64,000 bases of DNA from Strigamia acuminata (Eukaryota > Arthropoda > Chilopoda > Geophilomorpha > Linotaeniidae): contig OX442319.1 in NCBI GenBank assembly GCA_949358305.1, forward strand, positions 682,001-746,000. Reading direction: 5' to 3'. A model generated the notes under the pieces. It worked only from the letters and a program-made list of their open reading frames with translations. It ran no database searches and was not told where the DNA came from. Positions within the stretch are counted from its first letter, which is position 1. Each line of letters begins with the position of its first letter. Positions 8,660 to 42,102 of the stretch are shown here, one piece after another. Made by a program: the position numbers and the translations under genes.

Positions 8660-9125
8660 TGTTAGGAAATGCCCAACTGTTTGATCTTCTCAGTTGCATG
8701 TTTCCGGTTAAATGCAACGTGTGTGTCATTGCAATTCTGTATCCGTGTTACATTGGTTGATATTGACTTTTAAACTCTCATTCCTGTGCTAAGTGCCGCA
8801 ACCAATGTGCTTATTAGCAATGACATGCCCATATGTCGTCTGCTTGAATATGAGCGCTTATCCTTTAGTTTCTCATAGCTTTTGTTTGCATTATCGATTG
8901 TTTATGCCAGTTTACTTTACTTTTGTTATGTAAAGAATGAATCTTTGCCTGTTAACAATGATTCATTCTATTTCAAGCTTTGTAGCCTCGAAACAGGTGC
9001 TTTTCGAGTCCTTCTTCATGTTTAAGAATAAACAAATGGCAGACGCGAAATGCGGTGTCCCGCACCAGTTTTAACTCGGCTTTACAGTTTATTTCGGCAA
9101 TGACAGGTCTTCTAGATAATCAATA
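8660..9125 (+). repeat. 5' LTR of CoII-1
   Basis: It begins TGTTAGGAAATG. With the AAATT duplication assumed, it ends CAATA rather than the usual CA. The R/U5 half carries a 10-bp stem (8934-8943 with 8960-8969), a second stem CTCGAAA/TTTCGAG (8987-8993 with 9002-9008) and an AATAAA signal near 9028. Confidence 0.85.
8934..9008 (+). promoter_or_regulatory. Two R-region RNA hairpins in CoII-1 LTR
   Basis: AGAATGAATC pairs with GATTCATTCT across a 16-nt loop. It is followed by a CTCGAAA/TTTCGAG hairpin just upstream of AATAAA. The same arrangement, with compensating substitutions, occurs in the CoII-2 and CoII-3 LTRs. The position just before the poly(A) signal suggests a role in the RNA terminus or packaging; this is inference. 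Confidence 0.55.
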
Positions 9126-9127
9126 CA

Positions 9128-9138
9128 TGGTAGCAGAG
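9128..9138 (+). promoter_or_regulatory. Primer-binding site of CoII-1
   Basis: TGGTAGCAGAG lies 2 nt after the LTR. It is the same initiator-Met tRNA match as in the other copia elements. Confidence 0.8.
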
Positions 9139-10297
9139 GATGGTTGCGGCGCGGCCATCAAGTTTTTGTTGATTTGAAGACGACAGCGGACATTATCGGC
9201 GAACGAAGTCGCGACGTGCACGATTCGACCCGCAGCAGACGCGAGGCTCGAATTGCCGAGAATTCGTCAAGAAAACGACTTCAAACAACGCTGGATAGTT
9301 TCCACAGGCTGTAAGAACACTTGTCGTTATTATAAACTGATTTTTGGCGGAAATATAAGCCATTTCTTTCGAGAAAAAAGCCACGATAACTTTCGCGATG
9401 ACGTCACCAGCCAAGATGGCGGCGCCCTGTGCGATACGAGTTTGAGGCGGTGTTCGAGCTGTTTCTGAGCCGAGACGTGGATCCCAGCGCTGCAAATTAC
9501 AACGTGGGACCACATAAAGGACCGAGGAATCGTCTGGAATCGGTTTTGGATCGATTCGCAGCATTTTTCGTCAAAAACGAAGCGTTTTTCGGCGACGGCG
9601 ACCGAAATTGGATTTCCACGACGTTTTGGAGACGTTGCTCGTCATTAGCAAGCCGAGATACGAACGTACGACGTTCGTACAGTTGGAAAAGCCGTTGGTT
9701 TGTTCCCCGGTGAACGCCAACGAAGCCACAACCGTGTGGGGAATTTTTGGAGCGATTCTTCGCACACAAAGTGCGAACCGAGTTTCTGCGAACACGGATT
9801 AGCCCGGGACGGGTATCTGTGCTACGGTGGACCGGAATAGTCTTGTGCCACGTGCACAAGTGAATCACAACAGATTTCAACACGGAAAACAGCACGGAAA
9901 TCATCTTAACAACGTTGAAAGTGTATAACGGGGTCGAAATTAGCTTGTTATTATTCATTAAGTTTTTGTTTTGGGTCCATAGTATATTCTGCACCCTTTA
10001 GTCATTCGACTAGTGCAGTCTTATTTCGATCTGGGCTTGTTCGTGGCCAGCTAGCCGTCCCGCGGGCCTCAGTGGTGCCGATCGGAAGCTAGTAGAGCGA
10101 CCAGATACGAGTAGTTGTGCTCTCTTATAGAGCTGTACCAATTGGGAAGTTGTGCATTTATTTCGCCTATTTTTTTGGGGGTTTGCAATTTGCAAAAGTG
10201 CATTTCAAGTGTTATTTGTGCTCCGAATTTTGTGCGGCGAAATATTTTGTGAAAAACAAGTGCATTTAGTGGAAGAGTTTACCCAAATTGGACAATT
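9139..10297 (+). other. CoII-1 leader with structured module
   Basis: A 1.16-kb untranslated leader. It contains AAGATGGCGGC near 9412. At 9991-10016 a hairpin with apical ATTC (TTTAGTC-ATTC-GACTA) is followed by a CTC...GAG hairpin near 10120; both recur in the leaders of CoII-2 and CoII-3. Several 60-165 codon frames occur on both strands, but they are not preserved between the elements, so I do not call them genes. Confidence 0.55.
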
Positions 10298-13200
10298 ATG
10301 GCGTCGGAGGAAAAATACGACGATTATAAGTCGATAAAGAAATTAAATGGGACGAATTATGCCCAATGGGCGATTGGTGTGAAACTACTGTTATCCCAGC
10401 AAGGCGTGTGGGATCACGTGACGGGCGACGAGACTGCGCCGGGTCCCAACGCCACAGCCAAAGAAAAACGGGATTTCAAAGTGCGTGAGAAGCGGGCGTG
10501 GTCCACGATATGCCTGAGTTGCGAAGAAGCGCAACAGCTCGTGGCCGTTGCCAAGGATACTTCTAAGGGGGCGTGGGAAGCGATCCGAGATGCTTATCAG
10601 CCCACCACACGCGCCCGGAAGGACAGATTGAGGCGCGAGTTCCTGCAAATGCATCTGATGGACAATGAGGAGATGATGTGTTTTCTAGCTCGTGTCGACA
10701 GAAAAGTCGCAGAGCTCGCGAATGTCAAAGTCGTACCGACAGACGAGGAAATTGCATTCCAATATATGGATTTCCTCCCCACAACTTATGAAACAATTAA
10801 GCAGATAATGTACCACTGGGATGATTTGGACTTCACCACTGCAAAAGTGAAAGAGCGATTATTAGGAGAGTATAATCGTTTATTTGAAGCTTCAGACTCC
10901 TATGGCATACGTACACAGGATTCCATCGATAATGCAGGCGCATTCTTTGGAAAAGGGCGTTTCCAACGCGGCAAAGGCGGAAATCAGCCATTTACACCTT
11001 GAACTTGTTTTTCCTGTGGCGGCACTGGTCACTTTGCGAGAGAGTGCCCGTCACCGCCCAAACAACAAGCGAATATGCAAAGCCAACGAGGTGGCACCTC
11101 TGCACAGCTCGCAAAAGGCACTGCACGAGGACGTGGCCGTGGTGGAAAGACCAAAAAGGCCAATTTGGGACAAGTTGACATTTTTGATGAACCATTGACA
11201 ATGTTCTCGGCGGCAGTTCATCAAACTGAAGAGGAAATCACCTTGTCACCACCATTGTCTTTAATGTCGCATTGCGACTTTGATCCGCACTGGTACATAG
11301 ATACCGGTGCGACAGATCACTTTTCATTTAACAGAAGTTGGTTCGTGACCTTCAAGCCACTGTCCGGCTATAGTGTCCAGCAAGGGGAAGGGAAATCTAA
11401 AATTGAGGGCATTGGAAACGTGTTGATCACATCTTGTTATTCTGGCAGATGTAGGCATATCACACTGCAAAATGTTTATTTTGCGCCAAATTTTAAGAAG
11501 AATCTCTTATCGCTGGGCCGGACAGATGAAGCTGGTTTCACAACTTTTATCAAAAATGGAAAGTTGACCATGTTTAAAGACCGAATTGATGAGCCTTTTA
11601 TTGTTGCAGAAAGAACAAATGATCGGATGTATAAAGTTAACTGCAAAATAGAGGCCAATATTGTGAACACAACTGCACCTTCTGCGCAACAGAGTGCAGC
11701 GGTGGGTGGAAATTCGGTCAAAAATGTTGTAAAAAGTGAAAGTGTCATTAATCCTTTACTAAAAACAGTAGATTTTAAGGCAGCATTACTAAACACATTG
11801 AGTGGCGCAGTGCAGACTGCAGCGAAGCAGCAAGTGAGCGTAAATGCGCTAGTAAATGCGTCAAATCTTAAGAAAAGCGATTTAAATGATACTAACGGGC
11901 AAAATAATTCGAATGGGGGAAAAATCGAAAAGATCAAAGTGAAACCACAGCCAATGGACATTTGGCACTCCAGAATGGGCCATTTTAACGCAAGTGGGAT
12001 TGCAAAAATGGAAATTTCACCGGATATTTTCGGAGTTAAACTCTCCGACAAAGAACTTTCGCCTTGCGACGCGTGTTCGAAGGCAAAGAGCACTAGGGCA
12101 ACCTTTTCCCCAATCCCTGAAATTTCTACGAAGGGAATATTGGAAGTAATCCACATGGATCTGTGGGGCCCTCAGCCTTTTAAATCTTTGGGTGGGGCCA
12201 GTTATTACCTGATAATTGTGGACGACTATTCACATTTCATGTGGGTGGAAATTATTAAAAACAAGGGGGATGTATTTGAGCGTTTCAAACGATGGCAAAC
12301 ACAAGTTGAGCGCAGCACCGGGAAAAAGGTCAAATGCATCAAGACAGACAACGGCGGGGAGTTTGTGTCGAAAAAGTGGGATGACTATGCGGCTTCTATT
12401 GGGTTGAAGTGCATCACAACAAACCCCTACTCCCCAGAAATGAATTCTGTGGCCGAAAGAGCAAACAGAACAATTGTTGGGGGAATTAGAGCCATGCTCT
12501 TCGAAAACAATTTTCCAAAGGGTTTGTGGGCAGAATTGGCCGTGACAGTTGTCTATCTTAAAAATAGATTCCCACATGCAAGCTTAAGTGGGAAAACCCC
12601 TTATAACTTGTTTTATAACAAGAAAATGTCGTTGAGACATTTAAGATGTATCGGTTCCAAAGTTTTCGTGCACATCCCTTCGCAAACAAGGAGAAGCAAG
12701 TTGGAAGAAAGGGCATGGCCTGGGGCCCTAGTCGGTTACGCGATTAAGACGCGGGGGTATCGAGTTTGGGACCCCAAATCCAACCAAGTGATTGCTTCAA
12801 AGCATGTGAAGATTAATGAAAATGTTTTTTGGCATGAATCGGTGCAATCAAATTCCATTCCACGTGAGCCAGATTTTGTAGCGGCATCATGGGATGAAGA
12901 TTCAGATGATGAGATTCTTCCTGCTGTACAACAGCAACAGGTGCCCCCTGCTATACAGCAGTTATTTCAGTCCCCTAAACGTGCGATTCCGAATCCCCAA
13001 TTAGTTGAACAGGCTGCTGAGCCTGAAGTTGTGGAAGAAAACGCGCAGGCGGCTGGTGGAGTTCAGGAGGAAGAAATGGAAACTTCACCTCCACCGGTTA
13101 GAAGGAACCCACCACGAGGTGCTAAGTTAAAGGGGGACACAGTGAAACAGCGTGCAGCTGCTCCTGAGGAATTAAAAATATTGGATATGACACAATGGCA

Positions 13201-14941
13201 ACGGAGAGAAACCGTTAGGCAAAGTGGTGAAACTGCTGGGCAGGTAGATGTGATCTACATAACACCACTTGGCGATAGAATCCGCAGTCGGATTGATGTT
13301 GTACGATGGTGCAAAGAAGAAGACTATCAGTACGATGGGGGTTGTTTCGATTTCAAAGCAACAAATGAGACCATTGGGTTCGCCGGTCATGCATCCGTTG
13401 AACCGGACACATTTGAAGAGGCTATGTCCAATCCCAACAAATCTGACTGGCAGGATGCCATGGATGATGAAATTAATATCTTTAATGACAGAAAAGTTTA
13501 CGAAGAAGTTGATAAAACCGAAGGGACGAATTTACTGGGAACAAAATGGATTTATAAAATCAAACGTGACCATACTGGGGCAATTAAGCGTTGGAGAGCA
13601 CGTTTGGTTGCGCAAGGTTTTGGGCAGAAAGAAGGAGTTGACTTCACTGAGATATTTTCACCAGTGGTCAACTTTGTTCTCGTACTGATATTCTTTTGTT
13701 CTCTTGTGGTTCTGCAAGGCTGGCGAGATACACATCTCGACATCAAGTCTGCGTACTTATACGGAGACCTTGATGTGCCACAATACATCAATATCCCAAA
13801 AGGCTTCCGGACCAAGGAGAACCAACACAAATGTTGGCGGCTGGTCAAATCCTTGTACGGACTTCACCAGTCCGGAAGGATGTGGTATTTCAAGCTCCAC
13901 GAACGATTATTGGAAATAGGATTCACTCCAGTCTTAGGGTTGAATTGCGTATATAATTACGGCTCAGATGCCGTCCTTTTGTTTTACGTGGACGACATTG
14001 TTTTGTTTAGTCGTGATGCTTTCGTTGAACAATGTATCATCGAGTGGATTCAAGAGAGCTTTGAAATTGTCAACCTTGGACCGGTGACTCGTTTATTAGG
14101 GATTCATTTTGAAAGGAAAAATGGGGACATTTTAGTACATCAAAAGAGTTATATTGCGAAATTAGTCGAGAAATACGACATTGATCCGTGCCATAAAATT
14201 AAAATCCCAGTCACGGTCGGTACCATGATACAGAAGGTACAACCGGGCGAACAAATAAACTCGACGTTCCCATACAGGTCCCTAGTAGGGAGTTTACTAT
14301 TTATCGCGAATAGAACGCGTCCAGATATCCTCTTCAGCGTTATTGTATTGTCTCAATACAACGAGACCCACTCTAACAGGCATGTTAAAATGCTAATACA
14401 AGTGTTAAGATATCTGGCGAATACCCCCGATTATGTTATCAACTTAGCTAATTGTAAAAACAACAATTTAACGGTTTACACCGACGCGTCCTTTGCTTTG
14501 GACCAAGACAGTAGGAGAAGCTTTGGTGGTCACATAGTTTCTTTAGGAGGGGTTCCGATTTCATGGAATTGTCGAAAACAATCCATGACTTCACTGAGTA
14601 TTATGGAAAGCGAGTTTCTCGCAGTTGTCGATGGCGTGAGAGAGGTGATATGGCTAGAACGTTTGTACGATGCCGATATCATCTTGTGTTTTGGAAGAAG
14701 CGTTCCTTGTGTTTACGCCGATAGTATGCCGGCAATCAACTACGCGAAGAACAAAATCGAAAATCGTGCAAATAAACATATAGATGTTAAATTGCACTTT
14801 CTCCGTGATTGGTTTGAAAGAGGGGTGTTTAACATCAAGCATGTACCTGGCGAATTAAACATCGCCGATTTGATGACGAAGTGGTTGCCGCGCCCTAGAT
14901 TGTGTCAGCTCTGTGAGCATATTTTTGTCGTAGTCAAATAG
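10298..14941 (+). pseudogene. Copia gag-pol of CoII-1 with one in-frame TGA
   Basis: A single frame of 1,548 codons is interrupted only by TGA at 11000-11002 (codon 235), just ahead of the CCHC knuckle (CFSCGGTGHFARECP). Domains in order: UBN2-type gag (codons 1-230), CCHC (about 237), protease DTGATDHFS (about 337), GAG-pre-integrase and zinc finger (WHSRMGHFN, CDACSKAKS), integrase core (MDLWGP, IKTDNGGEF, NSVAERANRT), RT (KWIYKIKRDHTG, YVDDIVLF) and RNase H (YTDASFALDQD, SIMESEF), ending in DLMTKWL. CoII-2 has arginine at or next to the stop position, so a CGA-to-TGA change is the simplest reading. Leaky termination that favours gag is an alternative. All catalytic motifs I looked for are present. 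Confidence 0.9.
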
Positions 14942-14947
14942 TTGCGC

Positions 14948-14958
14948 AAAGGGGGATT
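14948..14958 (+). promoter_or_regulatory. Polypurine tract of CoII-1
   Basis: AAAGGGGGATT lies directly before the 3' LTR. CoII-2 has almost the same tract at 30717-30727. Confidence 0.8.
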
Positions 14959-15424
14959 TGTTAGGAAATGCCCAACTGTTTGATCTTCTCAGTTGCATGT
15001 TTCCGGTTAAATGCAACGTGTGTGTCATTGCAATTCTGTATCCGTGTTACATTGGTTGATATTGACTTTTAAACTCTCATTCCTGTGCTAAGTGCCGCAA
15101 CCAATGTGCTTATTAGCAATGACATGCCCATATGTCGTCTGCTTGAATATGAGCGCTTATCCTTTAGTTTCTCATAGCTTTTGTTTGCATTATCGATTGT
15201 TTATGCCAGTTTACTTTACTTTTGTTATGTAAAGAATGAATCTTTGCCTGTTAACAATGATTCATTCTATTTCAAGCTTTGTAGCCTCGAAACAGGTGCT
15301 TTTCGAGTCCTTCTTCATGTTTAAGAATAAACAATTGGCGGACGCGAAATGCGGTGTCCCGCACCAGTTTTAACTCGGCTTTACAGTTTATTTCGGCAAT
15401 GACAGGTCTTCTAGATAATCAATA
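14959..15424 (+). repeat. 3' LTR of CoII-1
   Basis: 466 bp, nearly identical to 8660-9125. It is followed by the AAATT duplication and then by resumption of the CoI-1 gag frame. Confidence 0.88.
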
Positions 15425-15429
15425 AAATT

Positions 15430-16241: not shown

Positions 16242-16721
16242 TGTAGCAGAGTAAGGCGCAGAATATCGGTGAATTATCACCGGGAAGCGTGAAAAAAGGG
16301 GCCGTGCTGCGCGCACGGACGTAGGCGATACGACGCGTATCGTAAGCGAGACGGCGCGTGGCTTAAGGCCACTTATAGCGCACTAAACTAGCACACAATG
16401 TGCTTTAAAGCAAAGGCAATGATAACAAAATATAAAACACTTTACTAAAATAAGAATACATTACATAAATGGTGTGAAAAACAATCAAGCAGCACACAGC
16501 CGTGTGCTGCGCCATCTTGTATTTGGATAACAGTGATGGTGGCACTCTGGTGCCGGAAATTAGCATTAATAAAGGATAAATCATTGGATTGAAGAACAAA
16601 TCATATCAAAACAAGACAAGAGTATGGAATTACATACGAGACATCGCTAAACTAACAATAATATCGAAATCAAAAGTATATAAATAAATACATCGACAAA
16701 AACATGGTCTTTAGACCAACA
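16242..16721 (-). repeat. 3' LTR of CoI-2
   Basis: 480 bp. On the minus strand it begins TGTTGGTCTAAAGACCA at 16721 and ends ...CTCTGCTACA at 16242. It is almost identical to the middle LTR at 21093-21572, which points to recent insertion. Confidence 0.88.
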
Positions 16722-16734
16722 AATCCCCTCTTCG
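16722..16734 (-). promoter_or_regulatory. Polypurine tract of CoI-2
   Basis: On the minus strand, CGAAGAGGGGATT abuts the LTR start at 16721. Confidence 0.7.
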
Positions 16735-21092: not shown

Positions 21093-21572
21093 TGTAGCAG
21101 AGTAGGGCGCAGAATATCGGTGAATTATCACCGGAAAGCGTGAAAAAAGGGGCCGTGCTGCGCGCACGGACGTAGGCGATACGACGCGTATCGTAAGCGA
21201 GACGGCGCGTGGCTTAAGGCCACTTATAGCGCACTAAACTAGCACACAATGTGCTTTAAAGCAAAGGCAATGATAACAAAATATAAAACACTTTACTAAA
21301 ATAAGAATACATTACATAAATGGTGTGAAAAACAATCAAGCAGCACACAGCCGTGTGCTGCGCCATCTTGTATTTGGATAACAGTGATGGTGGCACTCTG
21401 GTGCCGGAAATTAGCATTAATAAAGGATAAATCATTGGATTGAAGAACAAATCATATCAAAACAAGACAAGAGTATGGAATTACATACGAGACATCGCTA
21501 AACTAACAATAATATCGAAATCAAAAGTATATAAATAAATACATCGACAAAAACATGGTCTTTAGACCAACA
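21093..21572 (-). repeat. Middle LTR of CoI-2
   Basis: 480 bp. It serves as 5' LTR for the gag-pol copy at 20208 and as 3' LTR for the pol fragment at 21573-23080. Only a few positions differ from 16242-16721. Confidence 0.88.
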
Positions 21573-23590: not shown

Positions 23591-24239
23591 TTCGTTGTTG
23601 CGGTCGATCAACTCCGAATCGTAAAGAATGGCGAGTTGGCCTCGCCCAAGGTCGTATAGCTATTTTAGTACGAAAACCGTACGGAATCACAACAAAACTG
23701 GAGAGAAAGGCATTGTTGCAGCAGACGATTCGAGTGGTAATTCATTGTATTAGGTGAATTAGGTATTCAGGTAACGGCTGCATCATCTGTCAGCTGTGGA
23801 AATTGGCTTTTCTACTCACTAGCCATAGAAATGTAGGCTTAGAAATAAAAATATCCAAGAGTTAAAACTAAACAACTTCTTTAATGAACGGTTAGATGAT
23901 AACTGTTCTAAATACACGAATGTAATTGGCCCTCAAGGGAGCCGCACATGCGCAATACCGAGAACGGCACGCGCCGAGAAGATTAGCGGCGAAATACAGA
24001 TACAAAATTCTCCGTTGTCATGGCAACGGAGGAAAACGAAATACAGCCAAAGTTGACAAATTGTGAAATTAGCACGGATTACAGTTTGTAATAAATCAAA
24101 AGATGCACAATGAATCAGAGAACAAAAAGTTAAATTGTAACAATGTCTGAAATTACGTTAAACAATGCAAAAAAGGATGAAAACTGTGACCGTTAAGCAG
24201 ACGATCAAGACAGCCAATCACAGGCCAGTATGATGACGT
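23591..24239. other. No recognisable gene; CoII-2 left flank
   Basis: About 650 bp of mixed composition, probably more decayed CoIII or host intron. I see no protein similarity. It ends with GACGT (24235-24239), the left copy of the CoII-2 target duplication. Confidence 0.4.
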
Positions 24240-24707
24240 TGTTGGGTTGATGTTTTGCTGTTTGTCCCCGTGCGCGCGTGTGAAGTTAAATGCACCTTTA
24301 CGGCTTAGTGCATTTGATGTGTTATTGCTTCTAGACCTGTTCATGTGATCGGTCAATCCTGGTTTTTATTCAATGCGTGTTACGGTACCGCGACCGATCA
24401 TTATTTGCGATAACACATCTCACATTGTCATCCGCTCTAAAGAGCACTTATTGTTTGCTTTGTTTTGGATCAAGTTTATTGATTAACTTGGCCTGCTCTT
24501 AATGTAAAGAATGGATCATTGTGTAAAGACAATGATTCGTTCTGTCTTTTGTTTTGTACGAGATCGAGGACAATTAGCCTCGAACTCAAGTGATTTTTAC
24601 TACACCTTTTGTAATAAAAGATGGCGGACGCGTGTCCGATTTATCCGCCAAGCAGAAAACGATGTTTCGAGTTATTTAGGCAGCGCATAGGCCATCACAA
24701 CTCTTCA
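24240..24707 (+). repeat. 5' LTR of CoII-2
   Basis: It starts TGTTGGGTTGATG and ends CTCTTCA. The second half has a 15-bp stem with two G-U pairs (24508-24522 with 24529-24543), a CGAGG/CCTCG stem (24565-24569 with 24578-24582), AATAAA near 24611, and AAAGATGGCGGACG. Confidence 0.93.
24508..24583 (+). promoter_or_regulatory. Two R-region RNA hairpins in CoII-2 LTR
   Basis: Stem 1 begins AGAATGGATC and closes with GATTCGTTCT. Stem 2 is TCGAGG/CCTCGA. They have the same order and distance to AATAAA as in CoII-1 and CoII-3, with different bases but kept pairing. Confidence 0.6.
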
Positions 24708-25826: not shown

Positions 25827-28800
25827 ATGGCGTCATATGAGCGCCACGACGATTATAAGGACGTGAGAAAGTTGGATGGTACCAACTACCCGACTTGGAG
25901 CGTACAAGTCCAGCTCCTCCTCCAATCGTACGGTGTTTGGGGCCACGTAACCGGCAAGACCAAAGAGCCGCCGGCCGGATCACCGTTTCGAGAGACAAGG
26001 GACTTTGAGAAAGGCGAAGAACGGGCTCGCTCCACCATTTGTTTGGCTTGCGGCGAGGCCCAACAGGTCGTGGCTGTTGCCCAAGCCACTGCTAAGGAGG
26101 TGTGGAAGGCACTGAAAGCTGCCTACCAGCCCACGACACGGGCACGTAAAGCCCGTCTTCGCCGGGAATTTTTGGACATGCGGTTGCATGAAAACGAAGA
26201 AATGTTCGTTTTCACCGCACGAGTTGACCGAAAGGTCGTGCAACTTGCCGACGTCAAGATAAACATTACGGACGAGTTTCACGCCTTTCAATACCTCGAC
26301 CTGTTGCCACCCCAATACGAGCCGGTCAAGCAGACGGTTTATCACTGGGGTGACGCAGAGTTCACGGCAGCAGCGGTCAAGGAACGCCTGGTAGGCGAAT
26401 ACAACCGCTTGCATGTAAAGACCGACGAGTTTGGCGTGCCTTCCAAGACGCCATTGGAGAGCACTGGCGCTTTCTTTAACCAAGGCGGAAGACAACGCGG
26501 ACGTGGTGGAAATGCATCCGGCGGCCCACGCATCTGTTTTACTTGCGGTGGGACGGGCCACTTCGCCCGTGAATGCCCTACTCCGCCGAAACAGCAATTC
26601 CAACCAAAAGGGAACCAAACTGGACAATTTAGAGGCAATCCACGGGGCAAGGGACGTGGAAGGGGCCAGCAAAAGGCCGCTGTCACACAGGCTGACATAT
26701 TCAGCGACTCTCCAGTCTCTTATTACTCCGCGGCGATTTGGCTTCAACAACAACCCCCTGTGCCGGCTTCCCACGTGTCTCACGCGAATTATGATTCGCA
26801 ATGGTACGTCGACACAGGGGCGACGGACCATTTCTCCTTCAACAAAGACTGGTTCTCCGACTTCAAGTCATTAACTGGCCACGTGCAACAGGGAGAAGGA
26901 AAGTCGAGAATCGAAGGAATAGGAAATGTGACATTGACATCGATTTACGGAACCCGCACCCGTGCACTTACATTGCAAAATGTATTTTATGCACCCAACT
27001 TTAGGAAGAATTTGATTTCGTTGGGTCGCACGGGTGAAGCTGGGGCAACGACCATGATTAAAAATGGCAAAATGGTTATTTATAACGACAAAATTGATGA
27101 CCCTTCCATCACTGCGGAACGCACGAGTGATCGGATGTATAAGGTCAATTGTCGTATTTCTCCTGTGAACACTGCCGCATTACCTGCGCAACAGGCTGCG
27201 ACTGTGTCTTCTAGTCCGCTTATAAAAGGCGATGAAGTTGTAAATTCGATACTAACATACCCTAGTTTTAAGGACGCATTAACCCAAAATTCGAGTGAGT
27301 CAGGGAAACCTGCACCAGCGATAAAGGGGCAAGCGAGTGTTGCGAACAACGCGCCTGCGAATGTTACGACTAATGCGCAAGCGAATGTTTCGAATAAAAT
27401 CAAGGCAAAGACTGCCAATGCCTCTAAGGAGGCAAGTTCAATTGTGCAGAACAAAGCAGACAAAGCAGAGAATGGGAACAATTCTACTAATGGGGTTAAA
27501 ACTTTTGACAAGAAAGATAAGGCTCAAACGATGGACATTTGGCACTCCCGCTTAGGGCATTTAAATGCAAAGGGAATTGCGGGTTTAGAAAAATCAACTG
27601 ATGTTTTTGGGCTGAAACTCTCGAATAAGGAGTTGTCGACGTGTGACTCTTGCGCCAGGGCGAAGAGCACACGTGCTAGTTTTCCCCCAATAATTGGAAT
27701 TACGACAAAAAGTATTTTGGAAATAGTGCACTTAGACGTGTGGGGCCCCGCTCCAGTTCAAACATTGGGTGGGGCGTACTATTATCTCATTCTCATCGAT
27801 GATTTTTCCCGCTTTATGTGGATAATTATCATGAAACGGAAAAGTGACATTTTAGGACATTTCAAGCGGTGGCTACTTGAAGTTGAGCGAACGACCTCTA
27901 AGAAGGTAAAGGCCATAAAAACTGATAATGGAGGGGAGTTCATATCTAGACAATGGGACAATTATGTGGCGACAATTGGGCTTAAGTGTATGAGGACTAA
28001 TGCATACAGCCCAGAAGTGAATTCGGTCGCCGAACGGGCGAACCGTACCATTCTTAATGGTACTCGGGCACTTCTTTTTGAGAATAAATTTCCCGCCACT
28101 CTATGGGCAGAGCTTGCCGTTTCAGTTGTATATCTGAAAAACCGTTTTCCACATACGGGAATTGGTGGGAAAACACCTTATTCTGTGTTTTATAATAAGA
28201 AATTGTCCCTTCGCCATGTCAAGTGCATTGGCTCATTAACTTATGTCCATATCCCATCTCAGACTCGGGGTGGGAAATTACAAGACAGGGCATGGGCTGG
28301 GGCATTAATTGGATACGCCGCTTCTACACGCGGCTATAGAATTTGGGATCCGAATAAAAATCAGGTGTTTTTGTCTAAACACGTCAAAATTTTTGAAAAC
28401 AATTTCTGGTTTGAATTAGGGACGGTCACGTCGCCTGAATTGGAGAATGACTTTGATACTTCGAGTTCGGACTCGTTCAATGGGTCATTTTCTGACGACG
28501 ACAGTGCTGCTGGCGACCCGATAATTCAGAAGGCTCCGGGGATCCCGGAGGTCCTAGAAGTTCCGGAGATTCCGGAACCCCCTCCTGCGATACAGGAAGT
28601 CCCACAACCTGTTCCGCAGCAAAAAGTGAAACCCGCATTGCCCACGACCCCAAAGCCTACTTTTAGACCTGAATTGAGGCCAGTCGCTAAACAGGCAGCT
28701 CAGCAACCCCCACTCATGCCCGTTGAGGGGAACCCTATTCTTGGGGACGGGGATACAGGGGATGAGCCTGTTGAAGAAATTGGTGGGGCGAAGGGGGATG

Positions 28801-30710
28801 ATGGGAATTACTTCAACATCTATCCTGACAATGATGGGGAACCTGAAATTCCTTTTGGGATTCAAACACGGCGTGGATCACGATCAAAGAAAAAGAAAGG
28901 GAACGTGATGTTACATCCGGAACTACTGCCGTTAAATATGGCGGAATGGGAACGACGCGCATCCGTCCGTAAAGACGGAGCGACGGCGGGACAAATAGAT
29001 GTTGTTTACATCACGCCATTAAAGGACAAGATAAAAAGTCGAGTTGATATCGCACGGTGGTGCGATGAAGAAGGGTACGCATATGATGCGACCTTATTTG
29101 ACTTTAAGACATTAGAGGGGGACGGTGAACCGTTAGGGTTTGCAGGTTTCTGTGCCGTCGAGCCAGAAACCTACGAAGAAGCCATGTACCACATCAAGCG
29201 TCCTGATTGGATAAAAGCCATGAGAGAGGAAATTGATGTGTTCGATGAAAGAACGGTTTACAAGGAAGTTGACAAAACAACTTTAGACGAGGGTACGACT
29301 CTCTTGGGATCGAAATGGATATACAAAATGAAACGCGACCACACGGGTGTTATCCAACGCTACCGAGCCCGACTCGTCGCACAGGGCTTTAAGCAAAAGC
29401 CCGGAGTTGACTTTACGGAGGTGTTCTCCCCCGTCGTCAACTTCGTGCTAGTGATAGTGTTCTTTTGCACTTTGGTAATACTCAAGGGATGGCGGGATTT
29501 ACACCTGGATATCAAGGCCGCGTACCTTTACGGGGACCTCGATACGGTACAGTACATGGAGATCCCCAAGGGATATCGTACCGCCCATAATAAGCATAAA
29601 TGCTGGATGCTTTTAAAAGCACTTTATGGATTACACCAGTCCGGTCGTATGTGGTACCAGGTCCTCCACATACGACTACTTGAATTGGGCTTTCAACCGT
29701 TGTTGGGTTTAAACTGTGTCTATGCCCTAGACAACGACACGATAGTCATCTTCTACGTGGACGATATCGTGCTATTCTCGAAGGATGACTATGTGGAACA
29801 ATGCGTTTTGAAGTGGTTACGGGAATCGTTTGAAGTAGTGAGTCTGGGACCCGTAACTTTACTTTTAGGAATCGAGTTTGATAGGTCCGGGGGCATGATT
29901 AAAATCCACCAACAGAAATATATTGAAAAGCTTTGTAAAGCGTACGGGATTGACTCGTGCCATCGAGTAAAGGTTCCAGTAACCCCGGGAACCATGATTC
30001 AAAGTGTAAGAACCGGAGAAAAAGTCGACACCTCATTCCCGTACAGATCTCTGGTCGGAAGTCTGTTGTTCATCGCCAGCCGAACCAGACCCGACATACT
30101 GTTTTCAGTAATAGTGCTTTCCCAGTATAACGAGACGCATTCGACGCGCCATGTCAATATGTTACTGCAGGTCCTGCGATATTTGGCCACCACGTCGAAT
30201 TATTCGATTAACTTATCGAACTGTAAAAACGAGAATTTGACAGTTTACACCGACGCGTCGTTTGCCCTAGATCAAGACAGACGACGAAGCTTTGGGGGAC
30301 ATATTGTCTATATGGGTGGCATTCCCATCTCGTGGAATTGCCACAAACAATCGATGACCTCCCTGTCGATCATGGAGAGCGAATTTCTCGCCGTGGTCGA
30401 TGGGGTGAAAGAAGTTATTTGGCTCGAGCGCCTTTACGACGCGAAGATAATGTTTTGTCTCAAGCGAAATACGCCCTGTGTTTTTGCGGATAGCCAGCCG
30501 GCTATCCAATACTGTAAGAATAGGATCGAGAACAGGGCAAATAAACATATAGACGTGAAGCTCCATTTCGTTAGAGATTGGTTTGAGAAAGGAACGTTTT
30601 TGATCGAGCATGTTTCCGGCGAATTAAATGTCGCGGATATCCTAACGAAATGGTTAGCAAAGTCCCGGTTGAACGCGCTGTGCGAGTACATTTTTGTGAT
30701 AGACAAATAA
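25827..30710 (+). CDS. Copia gag-pol polyprotein of CoII-2, intact
   Basis: 1,627 codons. I chose the ATG at 25827 (MASYERHDDYKDVRKLDGTNY) because it aligns with the gag starts of CoII-1 and CoII-3; an upstream in-frame ATG at 25716 lies in the leader. Approximate residues: UBN2-type gag 1-230; CCHC knuckle CFTCGGTGHFARECP at 236-251; protease DTGATDHFS at 327; GAG-pre-integrase WHSRLGHLN at 570 and CDSCARAKS at 605; integrase core D-D-E at VHLDVWGP 633, IKTDNGGEF 695 and NSVAERANRT 731; proline/acid-rich linker about 870-1060; RT from SKWIYKMKRDHTG 1161 with YVDDIVLF at 1308; RNase H TVYTDASFALDQD 1471 and SIMESEF 1514; end DILTKWL. The polyprotein would package and reverse-transcribe its RNA and integrate the copy. 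No stop or missing catalytic residue is seen. Confidence 0.95.
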   Translation: MASYERHDDYKDVRKLDGTNYPTWSVQVQLLLQSYGVWGHVTGKTKEPPAGSPFRETRDFEKGEERARSTICLACGEAQQVVAVAQATAKEVWKALKAAYQPTTRARKARLRREFLDMRLHENEEMFVFTARVDRKVVQLADVKINITDEFHAFQYLDLLPPQYEPVKQTVYHWGDAEFTAAAVKERLVGEYNRLHVKTDEFGVPSKTPLESTGAFFNQGGRQRGRGGNASGGPRICFTCGGTGHFARECPTPPKQQFQPKGNQTGQFRGNPRGKGRGRGQQKAAVTQADIFSDSPVSYYSAAIWLQQQPPVPASHVSHANYDSQWYVDTGATDHFSFNKDWFSDFKSLTGHVQQGEGKSRIEGIGNVTLTSIYGTRTRALTLQNVFYAPNFRKNLISLGRTGEAGATTMIKNGKMVIYNDKIDDPSITAERTSDRMYKVNCRISPVNTAALPAQQAATVSSSPLIKGDEVVNSILTYPSFKDALTQNSSESGKPAPAIKGQASVANNAPANVTTNAQANVSNKIKAKTANASKEASSIVQNKADKAENGNNSTNGVKTFDKKDKAQTMDIWHSRLGHLNAKGIAGLEKSTDVFGLKLSNKELSTCDSCARAKSTRASFPPIIGITTKSILEIVHLDVWGPAPVQTLGGAYYYLILIDDFSRFMWIIIMKRKSDILGHFKRWLLEVERTTSKKVKAIKTDNGGEFISRQWDNYVATIGLKCMRTNAYSPEVNSVAERANRTILNGTRALLFENKFPATLWAELAVSVVYLKNRFPHTGIGGKTPYSVFYNKKLSLRHVKCIGSLTYVHIPSQTRGGKLQDRAWAGALIGYAASTRGYRIWDPNKNQVFLSKHVKIFENNFWFELGTVTSPELENDFDTSSSDSFNGSFSDDDSAAGDPIIQKAPGIPEVLEVPEIPEPPPAIQEVPQPVPQQKVKPALPTTPKPTFRPELRPVAKQAAQQPPLMPVEGNPILGDGDTGDEPVEEIGGAKGDDGNYFNIYPDNDGEPEIPFGIQTRRGSRSKKKKGNVMLHPELLPLNMAEWERRASVRKDGATAGQIDVVYITPLKDKIKSRVDIARWCDEEGYAYDATLFDFKTLEGDGEPLGFAGFCAVEPETYEEAMYHIKRPDWIKAMREEIDVFDERTVYKEVDKTTLDEGTTLLGSKWIYKMKRDHTGVIQRYRARLVAQGFKQKPGVDFTEVFSPVVNFVLVIVFFCTLVILKGWRDLHLDIKAAYLYGDLDTVQYMEIPKGYRTAHNKHKCWMLLKALYGLHQSGRMWYQVLHIRLLELGFQPLLGLNCVYALDNDTIVIFYVDDIVLFSKDDYVEQCVLKWLRESFEVVSLGPVTLLLGIEFDRSGGMIKIHQQKYIEKLCKAYGIDSCHRVKVPVTPGTMIQSVRTGEKVDTSFPYRSLVGSLLFIASRTRPDILFSVIVLSQYNETHSTRHVNMLLQVLRYLATTSNYSINLSNCKNENLTVYTDASFALDQDRRRSFGGHIVYMGGIPISWNCHKQSMTSLSIMESEFLAVVDGVKEVIWLERLYDAKIMFCLKRNTPCVFADSQPAIQYCKNRIENRANKHIDVKLHFVRDWFEKGTFLIEHVSGELNVADILTKWLAKSRLNALCEYIFVIDK

Positions 30711-30716
30711 CTAAAC

Positions 30717-30727
30717 AAAGGGGGATT
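30717..30727 (+). promoter_or_regulatory. Polypurine tract of CoII-2
   Basis: AAAGGGGGATT, directly before the 3' LTR. Confidence 0.82.
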
Positions 30728-31195
30728 TGTTGGGTTGATGTTTTGCTGTTTGTCCCCGTGCGCGCGTGTGAAGTTAAATGCACCTTTACGGCTTAGTGCA
30801 TTTGATGTGTTATTGCTTCTAGACCTGTTCATGTGATCGGTCAATCCTGGTTTTTATTCAATGCGTGTTACGGTACCGCGACCGATCATTATTTGCGATA
30901 ACACATCTCACATTGTCATCCGCTCTAAAGAGCACTTATTGTTTGCTTTGTTTTGGATCAAGTTTATTGATTAACTTGGCCTGCTCTTAATGTAAAGAAT
31001 GGATCATTGTGTAAAGACAATGATTCGTTCTGTCTTTTGTTTTGTACGAGATCGAGGACAATTAGCCTCGAACTCAAGTGATTTTTACTACACCTTTTGT
31101 AATAAAAGATGGCGGACGCGTGTCCGATTTATCCGCCAAGCAGAAAACGATGTTTCGAGTTATTTAGGCAGCGCATAGGCCATCACAACTCTTCA
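30728..31195 (+). repeat. 3' LTR of CoII-2
   Basis: 468 bp, same sequence as the 5' LTR as far as I can read, followed by GACGT. Confidence 0.93.
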
Positions 31196-31200
31196 GACGT

Positions 31201-32112: not shown

Positions 32113-35100
32113 TCATTCTAGTTCAAGAGCTCTCACATGTTTCACTGACCTTTTTAACTCTCTTCCATCGGGTAACACTACTTTAATAACACGGATTTGA
32201 TCATCATCACCGGGAAAAATTTCTTTTATCCTAGCAAGGGGCCAAAAATATGGGTTTGTACCCATTTTTTCAAGCAGCACTATTTGGTCCACTTTAGGGT
32301 TTTTGAAGAACTTATCACCTTTGGTCTCGTAAAAATTCCTCAATTGCATAAGGTAACTCTTTTTCCAAATTTTCCAAAATTCCCAGATAAATTGGCGTCG
32401 TTTAATATCCAATTTCCTCAAATCTGATTTTTTAATTACACTCAATTGTTTGTTTATTACGTATTTAGGCATACCTCCGGTTAAAAAGTTTTCAGGTGCC
32501 AAAATTGTACCACCATCAACACTGTCTGGGACGTAAGATAAGGGTCGTGAATTTAGCACTGAACTAATTTCCAAGGTCAAGGTTTGGAGAGTTTCTAAGT
32601 CTACGGTGCTGCACAATAATGTCTTTCAAAGTTTATCTTTTACGGAGCGAACTAGACGTTCCCACGCTCCGCCCATCCATGGAGATAGCGGTGGGATGAA
32701 TGTCCAAAGCACTCTTTTCTCAGATAGGAATGTTTTTACGTCTTTATGACCGATGAGTTTTCCCCACGATTGTAATTCGAGGCTCCCGCGCTCAAACGTC
32801 TTGCTGTTGTCGGAGAAAATCTTCCCGGGGTATCCATAGCGAGCCCCAAATCTTCTCAAAGCTAATAAAAACTTTGGCACAGAAAAGTCCTCTGAAACTT
32901 CTAAATGTAGGGATCGGGTCACCATACACGTGAAAAGCAATATATATACTTTTTTCTTTTCTTTCTTGTTGCTGCTGACATAAATGGGACCCAAGTGGTC
33001 CACTCCGGTGTTTTGGAATGGCGCCGCTGGTGTCACACGTTCAGCAGGAAGATCACCCGTTGAAGGGTTGTTGCGGGCAAGTTTTCCTCGTCTGCAAATT
33101 TCACATTCTCGAATAACTGTCTGTATAGTTCTTCTTCCTCTTATAATCCAAAATTGTTCGCGTAAGTGATACAAGGTTTCGCTTATATCACCGTGAAGCA
33201 ACTCCAAATGCACTTTTTTAATTAACAGTCTTGTTATCCAACTGTCATAATGTAAGATGATTGGATAAACTTCATCAAATGTCAATAAAGACTTTTTCAA
33301 GCGGCTACGAAGTCGAAGTAATCCGTCCTCGTCAATGAAGAGCTCGAAAATGCGTAGGGTGGAGTGTTTACTAAGTTCTCTTTTGTTTTTCACATCCTCG
33401 ACTTCCTCAGAAAAATGTAATTTCTGCGAAAACTGCAGGATCTTCTTTTGGTTGGCCTCTATCTCGAGTGGCGAGAGAGGCTCACCGCGTAAAAGTTTGC
33501 TTTTCCATCTCAAAATGTATGAGAAAACTCTCAAAAGTCTGTTGTAGTTCCGGAAACGTTTGAAGAATTGACCAATAAAGCTTTCTTTAACTTGAATAGT
33601 CATCACAATGATTTTTCGTTCCTCTTCTGGAAGATTTTCTTGTATAACTTCTCTTTTTTCCAGTTTCGAGACATCAACTCCAAACCACCAAAGTTTATTT
33701 TGCATCAATGTTTTTGAGTTGTGTGGTTGAGTTAATAAATCGGCTGGGTTAAATTCCGTTGGTACGTGAGACCATTGTTCGGGTTTGGTTGAAGAAATAA
33801 TTTCTTGCACACGGTTTGAGACGTATGGCTTCCATACGTTCTTGTCCGAATTTATCTAGGCTAGGGTTATGGTGGAGTCCGAGTAGTAACGCACTTCAGT
33901 GACTGGGTAACCTGGAAGAAAGTTTTCCAACAGGTACTTGGTCATTCGCACTCCTACCACTGCTGCAGTTAATTCAAGTCGAGGAAGAGTCACTTTTTTC
34001 GTCGGCGCAATACGGCATTTACTCAATAATAAAGTTCTTTTGCCCTCCAGATTTACGACAAAAATTGAACAGCCAAATGCCTTAGTGCTTGCGTCACAGA
34101 ATACTGGTAAAGTGATGTCTTGACCCGAATAAGTCTGCAACCAACGTTGAACTTTTAATTCCTTCAATTGTTATATGTCTTGACTCCACTCTTCAATTTC
34201 TTTTTTCTCTGAGTCAAGAATCTTTTCATCCCAGTTTTTTGTCCTCATCCAGATTGCTTGAACAAGTAGTTTCATTTGAAGCACAACAGGAGCAATGAGT
34301 CCCATTGGTTCGAATATTGAAGCCATTAATGAGACAACTTCTCGCTTTGTATTCGGAATTTTTTCAATTGTCGGAATTTTAAACATCATGACATCTTCTG
34401 CAGTGTCCCATAAAATACCAAGCATTTTTATGATTCCCAAGTCCGAAAACTCCTCTCCTCGCATATGAAATCCTTCTTTTTTCAAATTGTTGAAGACGTC
34501 CTTGCTTGAGGTCGCCCATTTTACGAGGGGAAGTTTACCGTCGTCTAGAATCATTTTCAGTTTCTCGCAATGTGAAGTGGTATCGGCTGTAAAATCACCT
34601 CCTGACGTCAAATCGTCCATGAAAATTCCATCATCGAGTGCATCAACTTCCTTTGCATGAGTTTTTTCGAATTGTTTCGCTTGTTTTCTAATTGTCGCAC
34701 ACAAGAGGAATGGAGAAGAAATGACGCCAAATGGCACGACAATCATTCGCAGAACCATTAGATTATTCCACAAATTTTGCCACGAATATGGTTCTTTGAA
34801 ATAGTCACGAGCCACCCACAAAAAGCGTAAAAAGTTTCTTTGGGTTGGGTTGATCATAATTTGGAGGAATGCCTGTTTTATGTCCGCTATTATGGGAATA
34901 CAATATAGACGGAATCTCACAATAACAAGAATCAAGTCAGGGTTTAGGGAAGGTCCCGGAAATAGACAGTCATTGAGGGAACGTTTTCCCTTCTTAGAAG
35001 AAGACGCGTTGAACACTACTCTAAATTTCGTCGTGTCTCGATCCTCCTTGATTACAGGATGGTGAGGGATATTGTAGGTTCCTTTCTTCAGAAAACGCTC

Positions 35101-35880
35101 TTCTTTTGGGACTTCCTCCGCGTGATTTTCGTGAATATACTGCCACATGGACTCGTCGTAACGTTTCTTGTAGTCCTCGTTGGCATCTATTCTTTTGAGC
35201 GTGTTAGCCAGTTGGTTCATGGCCAACTCCCAATTGGATTCCAAGTCGACTTCCTGTCCGTTGAATGGCAGCATGACTTCATAACGTCCATCGTCTAGAT
35301 GCTTCGTAGTGGATTCGAATCGATCGCGAATAAAGTCGAATTTTTTTTCTCCCGCGTTTATTCCGATTGCTTCCAAGTTCCATAGCTTGTCCAATTTTTC
35401 TTGGATGTCTAAATCGCATGTATTGCAACATGTTGTCATTCCTTCCTCATCTTCAAACAAATTGGTGTTCCCCGCCGCTCCGGACAAAACCCATCCAAAA
35501 ATTGTGTTGATTAGTCCAAGATCAGCGTTTACTTTTTTCTTGCCATCCTTAACGACCTTCCACCACACGTCGACTCCTAAAAGTACATCAATTTGAGCAG
35601 TCTTAGCTGGTAAGTCTTCAGCAAGTTCAAGATTTAATTTCTTCACTTTGTCAATTATTGATGAGTTCAGAATGCCCTGCACTCGTGGCAAATTTTCCAC
35701 AGAAAGCATTGAAAGTTTCAAATCTTGAGTGTCATTTTTGCTCTGCAGAGTGACATTAAATACGTCATAGTCCGTGGCAGCAGGCGACGAATCGTTAAAA
35801 CGTTGCGTTGTTGCCGAAACACTGCCGCATTTTTTAAGTTTCAGTCTTTCTACAAATTCTTTGGTGATGAACTGGTTTTT
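32113..35880 (-). pseudogene. BEL/Pao pol, one frame with three stops
   Basis: The frame stays open from 35892 to 32113 apart from stops at 34171-34173, 33856-33858 and 32626-32628. There is no frameshift. Order: C-terminal part of the aspartic protease domain (DVLLGVDVWWKVV, IFGWVLSG), RT (FRVVFNASSSKKGKRSLND, IADIKQAFLQI, MDD in DGIFMDDLTSGG), RNase H region (VFCDASTKAFGCSIF, LPRLELTAAVV, YYSDSTITLA), integrase finger (HGDISETLYHLREQF, CEICRRGK), integrase core (GVDHLGPI, FSDNSKTF, GGAWERLV) and the BEL-specific C-terminal domain (DQVLLEK-like segment, VVLPDGRELKRSVK). Gag and the protease active site are gone. The N-terminal end fuses to gypsy sequence at about 35880. Confidence 0.88.
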
Positions 35881-35960
35881 CTGTGTTTTCAACTACAATT
35901 TCACCTTTTTTACTGATTTTTTCTACTTTTTCAGCAAATTTCACTTTCTTTTTTCATCAA
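35880..35960 (-). pseudogene. Fragment of gypsy pol tail at the BEL junction
   Basis: About 80 bp nearly identical to 4897-4975, the charged tail of Gy1 pol (ISKKGEIVVENTE). It sits between the BEL 5' break and the gypsy protease. The string TTTCTGTGTTTTCAACTAC spans the junction with BEL. Confidence 0.7.
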
Positions 35961-36011
35961 GCACGCCAGACTCAATTACATAAAAGGCTTTTGCAATTGC
36001 TGAGTTGTTCC

Positions 36012-41043: not shown

Positions 41044-41101
41044 TACAGGGTGAGTCAAAAGTCCGGAAACACCTTTTTTTCTTGAAAATGATCGAAGATA
41101 T

Positions 41102-41594
41102 TGTTACGCGGTAGAGCCGTACCGTGTATCGGCTGGCTCTGCTCGCTCTGTTTAGGCATTTAATGCAATGAATTCTCACTAGACGGCGCTGTGCACCTAA
41201 TTAGATGCACAGACCGTTCAACTTAGTTGATAGGGGGAATAGGAGTTTACTTAGTGAGCTGATTAAGCCAGAGAGCTCAGATCTCTTTTGATTCTCAAAC
41301 TTTTACCTTCACCTACTACTGCCAGCCGGTTGACGGTCAGGCAGGACTAGGTTTCCTGAATTGAATTGAAATAACAACAGCATCATCCTTATTTGATTTG
41401 AATGAACCATTTATGTGTTTTAGGTTTAATAAATGAACAAATGTAATAAGAGCTGATGACCGAACATTTACATTAGTAAATTTCCGACTTTGAATAATAA
41501 AGCCAATAGGCATTTTACATATAAAACCCTGTGTCATTCTTGATTAACTTCATGTCACGTAGGACTAAACCAATCCCCATTTAGTCACGTAACA
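41102..41594 (+). repeat. Solo gypsy LTR with ATAT duplication
   Basis: 493 bp, starts TGTTACGCGG, ends CACGTAACA, flanked by ATAT (41098-41101 and 41595-41598). It has AATAAA signals in plus orientation. Same family group as 1682-2263 and 37669-39015. It probably formed by LTR-LTR recombination. Confidence 0.85.
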
Positions 41595-41618
41595 ATATAT
41601 TAATTCTGTTGATGTAGA

Positions 41619-42102
41619 TGTTGGGTCAAAGCAGTTTTTCATTTCACGTATTAACGGCGCACCTTTTCTGGCTAAGTGCGTTAAAGGCGAAATTCGGGTC
41701 GCATTGTTTACTGTACTGGAATCGAGAGCCAACTGCATCTGACTGTCGCAATGCGTGTTAAATACTACAGTTGGCTCATGTTTATCAATGGATTTCGAGT
41801 TGTCGTCTGCTATGATTTAGTTTATCTATTATTTCCCCCAGTGCATTATCCAGTGTTAATGCTGGCTTTGAGTTATCTTTACTTTGGTTATGTAAAGAAC
41901 AAATCAACCTTTCCATCAGGATGATTTGTTCTACTTTTAGATCGAGGGCAAATAGCCTCGACACCTGTACATATTCACTTGCTCACCTGTTCTTGCCTGA
42001 ATAAAGATGGCCGACGCGTTTGTGCGGTTTTCAGGCACAAAATGACTTTCGTTTCGTCTCCAGTTTATTTCCCGGCGTTGACAACTTCACTTATCATCGT
42101 CA
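41619..42102 (+). repeat. 5' LTR of CoII-3
   Basis: Starts TGTTGGGTCAAAG, ends CATCGTCA. It carries an 11-bp stem (41896-41906 with 41922-41932), a TCGAGG/CCTCGA stem (41942-41947 with 41956-41961), AATAAA near 42000, and AAAGATGGCCGACG. Confidence 0.92.
41896..41961 (+). promoter_or_regulatory. Two R-region RNA hairpins in CoII-3 LTR
   Basis: AGAACAAATCA pairs with TGATTTGTTCT, followed by TCGAGG/CCTCGA. Compared with CoII-1, one T-A pair has become C-G and one G-C pair has become A-T, so pairing is kept while sequence changes. Confidence 0.6.

What the first reader, a model, noticed from the sequence alone, without database searches (positions are those of the whole stretch)
8934..41961. 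Covarying stem-loops in the R region of three copia LTR families
CoII-1, CoII-2 and CoII-3 LTRs differ strongly in sequence. Just upstream of AATAAA, however, each has a stem opening AGAA followed by a variable part (8934-8969, 24508-24543, 41896-41932). At stem position 5 the pair is T-A, T-G or C-G; at position 6 it is G-C, G-C or A-T; at position 7 it is A-T, G-T or A-T. Compensatory change is what selection on RNA pairing predicts. A second CGAGG/CCTCG-type hairpin follows in each. A role in strand transfer, RNA end formation or packaging is inference.
Basis: seen in the sequence. Interest (0 to 1): 0.75.

Follow-up and report, generated by a model that had tools for sequence, protein, structure and literature searches.

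The report
Paired RNA stems in centipede LTRs
A family of centipede jumping genes keeps a small RNA hairpin near the end of its transcript: its letters change, but the two sides change together so that they still pair, which suggests that the RNA shape itself matters, perhaps for finishing the transcript.

Summary
Each of the three copia LTRs (E1-E3) has its best hairpin at the stated place, with the stated pairs. On a tree built from the flanks, the outer 10 pairs show about 22 changes that keep pairing and 0.7 that break it on internal branches, against 17 and 9.5 on terminal ones. New mismatches are mostly sense-strand G.U (22) rather than A.C (5), pointing to the sense RNA, not a DNA palindrome. 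All three elements carry the MBD domain of the known arthropod 'CopiaMBD' group. The second hairpin is as described in E2 and E3, but pairs differently in E1; 'R region' is unproven. UGUA stands directly before the stem in 174 of 179 loci, and 27 of 29 representatives have another before the poly(A) signal. My best mechanism is a structured upstream element for 3'-end formation. The pairing is well supported; the function is inference.

The parts
8657..9125 (+). 5' LTR of copia element E1 (3' LTR 14956-15424)
   Evidence: self-BLAST 99.6%
8929..8932 (+). UGUA directly before the stem (E1)
   Evidence: sequence; TGTAA in 174 of 179 loci
8934..8969 (+). covarying stem-loop 1 of E1 (10 bp, mismatch, 3 bp); second copy 15233-15268
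8981..8984 (+). second UGUA, between stem 1 and hairpin 2 (E1)
   Evidence: sequence
8987..9008 (+). second hairpin of E1, CTCGAAA/TTTCGAG; CCTCGA supplies the 5' arm
9027..9032 (+). AATAAA, presumed poly(A) signal (E1)
24239..24707 (+). 5' LTR of copia element E2 (3' LTR 30727-31195)
   Evidence: self-BLAST 100%
24503..24506 (+). UGUA directly before the stem (E2)
   Evidence: sequence
24508..24543 (+). covarying stem-loop 1 of E2 (14 bp counted; a further U-A pair closes the loop in the fold); second copy 30996-31031
24555..24558 (+). second UGUA, between stem 1 and hairpin 2 (E2)
   Evidence: sequence
24564..24583 (+). second hairpin of E2, TCGAGG/CCTCGA
24613..24618 (+). AATAAA, presumed poly(A) signal (E2), overlapped by UGUA at 24610-24613
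41619..42104 (+). 5' LTR of copia element E3 (3' LTR 51950-52435)
   Evidence: self-BLAST 99.8%
41891..41894 (+). UGUA directly before the stem (E3)
   Evidence: sequence
41896..41932 (+). covarying stem-loop 1 of E3 (11 bp, mismatch, 2 bp in the 14-bp scheme); second copy 52227-52263
41942..41961 (+). second hairpin of E3, TCGAGG/CCTCGA
41966..41969 (+). second UGUA, after hairpin 2 (E3)
   Evidence: sequence
42000..42005 (+). AATAAA, presumed poly(A) signal (E3)

Best explanation
The stem is a real RNA hairpin of the sense transcript of CopiaMBD-type copia elements, kept by selection on base pairing (supported by comparison). Most likely it belongs to a structured upstream element for making the RNA 3' end (inferred): UGUA, then the 14-bp hairpin, then further UGUA and a second hairpin, then AAUAAA. 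The hairpin would loop out about 36 nt, so that spaced UGUA motifs can be bound together by cleavage factor CFIm near the poly(A) signal. If transcription starts upstream of the stem (not known), the same hairpin also sits at the RNA 5' end. My estimates: selection on RNA pairing 0.95; 3'-end formation as the main role 0.45.
For: Pairing: in 34 distinct forms 95.2% of cells pair (shuffles 90.6%, 0 of 500 as high; slid partners 28-54%) with 5 pairs changed on both sides, and RNAalifold finds 13 of the 14 pairs unprompted. In 50 forms 96.2% pair and 25 cells have changes on both sides against 3.4 in shuffles; RNAalifold finds the outer 10 pairs. Tree events, outer 10 pairs: internal 21.7 kept and 0.7 broken; terminal 16.6 kept and 9.5 broken. 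Strand: G.U gains 22.1 against A.C 5.2, for C>T and for A>G alike; 22 against 5 has a binomial P of about 0.0008 if events are independent. In the 16 forms seen at two or more loci, G.U 14 and A.C 0 of 160 cells. Constraint: stem sites change at about half the rate of loop and flank. 3' end: UGUA precedes the stem in 174 of 179 loci; 27 of 29 representatives have another UGUA before the poly(A) signal (mononucleotide-shuffle mean 11.9), while the 60 nt upstream are poor in it (3 of 29, mean 11.5). In print, UGUA is the CFIm site, enriched 40-100 bp upstream in human and mouse poly(A) sites, and the NUDT21 dimer can bind two UGUA if at least 7 nt apart (PMC10476966, passages).
Against: No transcript end, start or probing data. 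The first UGUA lies 98-110 nt before AATAAA in E1-E3, outside 40-100 unless the hairpin is looped out. The 29 representatives are hand-picked and related, so the UGUA count is not 29 independent facts; L100 and L173 have no further UGUA. The number of pairs changed on both sides is not unusual in the 50-form set (3 against 1.5; 52 of 500 shuffles as high), nor the number of pair types. Loci were found by similarity to stem-bearing queries, which favours copies with the stem. Five of 184 loci lack the stem or part of it.
Confidence: 0.5

Rival explanations
1. TAR-like or leader element: transcription starts just upstream, so the hairpin is in R at both RNA ends and serves strand transfer, packaging or dimer formation.
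For: Same place in all families sampled. A small hairpin upstream of the stem has weak support, and further ones in U3 and U5 are seen by eye. Ty1, a copia-type element, has a structured 5' end with palindromes, a pseudoknot and a proposed packaging region (PMC8396678, passages).
Against: No start site identified. The loop varies in sequence and length and changes about as fast as the flanks, so no loop-loop contact is visible. RNAalifold found no common U5 structure.
Confidence: 0.3
2. DNA-level palindrome: a dimeric DNA-binding protein or a DNA cruciform, not RNA, keeps the inverted repeat.
For: Positions 1, 2, 4 and 9 are nearly invariant in sequence.
Against: Variable positions change in step instead of keeping one site sequence. 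Mismatches prefer sense G.U over A.C by about 4 to 1; double-stranded DNA has no reason for that. A hairpin in plus-strand single-stranded DNA is not excluded.
Confidence: 0.04
3. Shared ancestry, recombination between LTR families or ascertainment produced the pattern without selection on pairing.
For: Families are related, and copies were found by similarity. Shuffles that ignore relatedness can overstate covariation (stated in the description of the count of structure pairs).
Against: The tree-based count uses only flanking columns for the tree and still gives 21.7 kept and 0.7 broken; over all 14 pairs 20 resampled trees agree. Pair 3 changed from A-T to G-C in L094 and in L157, L169, L171, L172 and L174.
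Confidence: 0.05

Closest known systems
CopiaMBD elements of arthropods (de Mendoza, Pflueger and Lister 2019, Genome Research; seen only as a cited title; paper not held; the name CopiaMBD is recalled)
   Same: copia-type gag, integrase and reverse transcriptase with a methyl-CpG-binding domain after the integrase (MBD in E1, E2 and E3); arthropod host
   Different: I could not read whether that paper describes LTR RNA structure; no phylogeny against its elements was made
TAR and poly(A) hairpins of HIV-1 (PMC2645353, abstract read)
   Same: hairpins of the LTR transcript beside the poly(A) signal whose folding affects 3'-end formation
   Different: here AATAAA lies outside the stem, 57-69 nt downstream; no transactivator is known; the retroelement family is different
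CFIm-dependent UGUA upstream elements of poly(A) sites (PMC10476966, passages read)
   Same: two or more UGUA upstream of AAUAAA at spacings a CFIm dimer could bind
   Different: here a conserved hairpin stands between the motifs; CFIm dependence untested
LTR stem-loop conservation noted in R of retroviruses (PMC3601003, passages read)
   Different: that work built copia models for plants only (few, divergent animal copia elements prevented models) and reports no conserved poly(A) signal there; here animal copia LTRs have AATAAA and a covarying stem

Membership tests
CopiaMBD (arthropod Ty1/copia with MBD) | copia-type proteins, integrase before reverse transcriptase | tested here: met
   Retrotran_gag_2, zf-CCHC, rve, SH3_retrovirus, then RVT_2 in E2; SH3_retrovirus (rve below its cut-off) before RVT_2 in E1; E3 has rve and SH3 but no RVT_2 in the frame scanned
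CopiaMBD (arthropod Ty1/copia with MBD) | methyl-CpG-binding domain in Pol | tested here: met
   PF01429 above its cut-off in all three elements
CopiaMBD (arthropod Ty1/copia with MBD) | groups with published CopiaMBD elements in a tree | not tested
   no published sequences at hand
TAR / poly(A) hairpin type | hairpin lies in R, at both RNA ends | not testable with these tools
   no transcript start or end data
TAR / poly(A) hairpin type | AAUAAA inside a hairpin (poly(A) hairpin) | tested here: not met
   AATAAA lies outside stem 1 and hairpin 2 in E1-E3; a local fold around AATAAA itself was not made
CFIm upstream element | UGUA upstream of the poly(A) signal, at least two, 7 nt or more apart | tested here: met
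   27 of 29 representatives have a further UGUA downstream of the stem; 174 of 179 loci have one before it
CFIm upstream element | usage depends on CFIm | not testable with these tools
   needs cells
palindromic DNA binding site | conserved half-site sequence, no strand preference | tested here: not met
   both-sided changes and G.U over A.C

The most novel reading that the evidence does not exclude
A hairpin-spaced UGUA clamp: copia LTRs use a covarying RNA stem to bring separate UGUA motifs together as a CFIm-bound upstream poly(A) element. The same genome's second copia clade carries its own covarying 9-bp hairpin followed by UGUA and ATTAAA/AGTAAA, so the arrangement would be a recurrent solution in copia LTRs.
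Probability: 0.3. Interest if true: 0.65.

Novelty: new variant of a known kind. Interest (0 to 1): 0.52.

Why it matters
Structured LTR RNA is well studied in retroviruses and yeast Ty1 but, as far as I know, hardly in animal copia elements. A hairpin with this much natural covariation, in 50 sequence forms inside one genome, gives ready-made compensatory variants for testing how LTR retrotransposons make RNA ends, load their RNA or transfer strands. The strand-asymmetry test used here (G.U against A.C) is simple and could be applied to other LTR families.

Tried and rejected
DNA palindrome: rejected on strand asymmetry and both-sided changes. Rfam: no match in the window at gathering scores. 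Loop-loop contact: loops vary in sequence and length. U5 hairpin: RNAalifold on the U5 alignment gave no common structure (energy 0), so I report it only as seen by eye. Transcription start: an initiator-like TCAGTT upstream of the stem in some families was only looked at, not tested. Differences between the two LTRs of one element as a neutral control: about three stem changes by eye, too few to use. First regex extraction picked wrong registers and was replaced.

Full report
What was given and what is there. The LTRs are 8657-9125 and 14956-15424 (E1), 24239-24707 and 30727-31195 (E2), and 41619-42104 and 51950-52435 (E3). Each stem is the best perfect hairpin of its LTR; as good a stem arises in a dinucleotide shuffle of that LTR with probability about 0.08 (E1), below 0.01 (E2) and 0.02 (E3). 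Folding z-scores are -2.8, -4.8 and -4.7. The stem is best described as 14 bp with an 8-10 nt loop and, in many forms, a mismatch at pair 11 or 12.

Host and element type. The genome has 237,517,015 bases in 157 contigs. Contig lengths of 66.99, 37.79, 16.99, 16.15, 12.25, 10.36, 10.34 and 9.63 Mb equal, and 19.34 and 14.71 Mb are within 0.01 of, entries in the chromosome table of the centipede Strigamia acuminata (237.5 Mb, 158 scaffolds; PMC10556566, passages). The identification rests on lengths, not on a sequence comparison. E1, E2 and E3 code for copia-type proteins with a methyl-CpG-binding domain after the integrase part. This fits the arthropod 'CopiaMBD' group of de Mendoza et al. 2019, which I know only as a cited title plus recall (paper not held).

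Copies. With DNA queries I found and fetched 184 LTR stretches of this type (L001-L184, from hits); six of them are the window's own copies. Most hit lists were capped at 40 and I fetched a part of most of them, so this is a sample. A sequence-motif rule that does not use pairing extracted 182 of 184. L145 and L160 have no stem. L146 and L163 have lost part of an arm, and L182 has unrelated sequence in its place. Leaving out these five gives 179 loci with 50 distinct stem-loop forms. They were found by similarity to mostly stem-bearing queries, so absence of the stem is under-sampled. They include both LTRs of many elements, so 179 loci are fewer insertions. The covariance model R1, built from the first 34 forms, found 33 of 37 later loci at 47 bits or more; L163, L145, L160 and L182 score 28.5, 25.9, 18.2 and 17.4 bits.

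Covariation. First set, 34 distinct rows (L146 left out): 95.2% of 476 cells pair, shuffles 90.6% (0 of 500 as high), slid partners 28.3-53.8%; 5 of 14 pairs have a change on both sides (shuffles 1.8, 0 of 500; 22 cells against 6.3). RNAalifold on the same rows finds 13 of these pairs by itself. Full set, 50 rows, outer 11 pairs: 96.2% of 550 cells pair, shuffles 92.4% (0 of 500), slid 31.1-49.1%; 25 cells have both sides changed, shuffles 3.4 (0 of 500); RNAalifold finds the outer 10 pairs. Against my reading: the number of pairs changed on both sides (3) and of further pair types (12) is not unusual in that set (52 and 208 of 500 shuffles as high); in the first set the number of pair types is not unusual either (117 of 500). 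The inner three pairs are misaligned in the full set for families with longer loops and were not counted there.

Events on a tree. To deal with relatedness I built a tree from flanking columns only and counted changes by parsimony over sampled reconstructions. In the outer 10 pairs, internal branches have 21.7 changes that keep pairing and 0.7 that break it; terminal branches, which include decay after insertion, have 16.6 and 9.5. Over all 14 pairs, 20 resampled trees give on average 28.5 kept and 10.0 broken (internal), and 22.5 and 12.2 (terminal); the breaks on internal branches are thus mostly in the four inner pairs. Stem sites took 96 steps over 28 sites (3.4 each), sites of 8-nt loops 54 over 8 (6.8), and 154 flanking columns 7.0 each (from the lists).

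Which strand. From a Watson-Crick pair, one transition gives either G.U (still paired in the sense RNA) or A.C (broken in the sense RNA, wobble only in the antisense). Strand-symmetric mutation gives both equally. In the outer 10 pairs I find 22.1 to G.U and 5.2 to A.C; C>T gives 9.0 against 3.5 for G>A, and A>G 13.1 against 1.7 for T>C. For all 14 pairs the counts are 10.7 and 2.4 on internal, 14.3 and 4.3 on terminal branches, so terminal branches show nearly the same ratio. In the 16 forms seen at two or more loci (sometimes the two LTRs of one element) there are 146 Watson-Crick, 14 G.U, 0 A.C and 0 other cells; in the 34 single-locus forms 293, 37, 5 and 5. The sense strand folds more stably in 36 of 50 forms and the antisense in 14 of 50. 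This favours RNA of the sense strand. RNA editing of adenosines could add A>G but not C>T.

Second hairpin. TCGAGG/CCTCGA is paired in 87.5% of 240 cells of the 40 rows that have both arms (shuffles 84.1%, 0 of 500), with 11 cells changed on both sides: 10 C-G to T-A and one G-C to C-G (L174). The innermost pair is unpaired in 17 of 40 rows, and the number of pairs with both-sided change (2) is not unusual (111 of 500). In the E1 group the upstream arm is absent and CCTCGA pairs downstream in other ways (CTCGAAA/TTTCGAG in E1; CCTC-GAAA-GAGG in the L018 group, by eye). The conserved CCTCGA may therefore matter as sequence too.

Function. TGTAA stands directly 5' of the stem in 174 of 179 loci (TGTGA 3, TATAA 2). 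Of 29 hand-picked representatives (39 looked at, 10 dropped as close to a kept one), 27 have a further TGTA between the stem and the poly(A) signal (mononucleotide-shuffle mean 11.9; best other arrangement of the same letters 16), and only 3 of 29 have one in the 60 nt upstream (mean 11.5). UGUA is the CFIm binding motif, enriched 40-100 bp upstream in human and mouse poly(A) sites; the dimer can bind two of them if at least 7 nt apart (PMC10476966, passages). I therefore propose a 3'-end module in which the stem loops out the RNA between UGUA motifs. The first UGUA is 98-110 nt before AATAAA in E1-E3, so it falls in the known range only if the stem is looped out. TAR-like, strand-transfer and packaging roles remain open because no transcript ends are known.

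A second clade. Three other copia sequences in the window (E4, E6, F7) carry a different hairpin. I fetched 20 relatives of the 40 listed and aligned 11 rows (8 of the 20, plus E4, E6 and F7; 10 distinct): 97.8% of 90 cells of 9 pairs are paired (shuffles 93.1%, 0 of 500) and two pairs are changed on both sides (5 cells against 1.7). The number of such pairs is reached by 49 of 500 shuffles, and further pair types (3 against 3.9) do not exceed them. In all 24 sequences looked at, TGTA stands between the hairpin and an ATTAAA or AGTAAA.

In print. Searches for covarying or structured copia LTR RNA and for MBD-bearing copia elements listed no paper that by its title or the start of its abstract describes this stem. 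Some of these lists were capped (12 of 1,634, 15 of 115, 8 of 19, 8 of 140), I read passages only of those cited, and most subscription papers are not held, so this does not show that it is unpublished.

Verdict. Observation confirmed, with the second hairpin right in two of three families; selection on RNA pairing well supported; mechanism inferred. It is a new variant of a known kind, structured LTR RNA, in a known element group.

Noticed in passing
window 21340-21361 (-) and 16489-16510 (-), 63864-63885 (-) and 57166-57187 (-), 6797-6818 (+): A second copia clade has its own covarying 9-bp LTR hairpin (GCAGCACAC/GTGTGCTGC; A-T for G-C at pair 4, T-A for A-T at pair 3 in E6) just after AAGATGGC or AACATGGC, with TGTA and ATTAAA/AGTAAA downstream.
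   Followed up: partly
window 7063-7085 (+), 54809-54831 (+), 63597-63619 (-): CTCTGCTACAATTGGTAGCAGAG: an LTR end that is complementary to the adjoining primer binding site, which could fold it into a hairpin. A self-priming or sequestered primer site is possible.
   Followed up: no
window 42006-42018, 24620-24632 and relatives: AATAAA is followed at once by a strongly conserved GATGGCGG(A/T)CGC-like stretch; recalled likeness to a YY1/Pho site, which in other elements positions transcription starts. Untested.
   Followed up: no
U5 of L150, L170, L100, L018: Possible nested U5 hairpin GCGG-TCGC..GCGA-CCGC with variants CTGC/GCAG and ACGC/GCGT, seen by eye; RNAalifold on a MAFFT alignment found no common structure.
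   Followed up: partly
upstream of the stem, e.g. window 24434-24445 (+): Small conserved hairpin GCTC..GAGC: at one pair C-G 22, T-G 4, T-A 3 and unpaired 3 of 32 rows; RNAalifold energy only -0.27.
   Followed up: partly
window 8750-8808, 24346-24400, 41726-41777: U3 of E1, E2 and E3 each has a 9-10 bp long-range inverted repeat of quite different sequence (ACATTGGTTG/CAACCAATGT, TGATCGGTC/GACCGATCA, GAGCCAACTG/CAGTTGGCTC), seen by eye and in the LTR folds.
   Followed up: no
window 49538-51892 (+): E3 has no RVT_2 match between its MBD domain and the 3' LTR, and another LTR element (43575-49011, -) lies inside it.
   Followed up: no
window 12275-13474, 28116-29315, 50738-51892: MBD domain (PF01429) after the integrase part in all three copia elements.
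   Followed up: partly
window about 54034-54614: Tandem array with a repeat unit of about 29 bases.
   Followed up: no
window 34174-35892 (-): Reading frame with Pao peptidase (PF05380) and an RVT_1 match below its cut-off: probably a Bel/Pao element.
   Followed up: no
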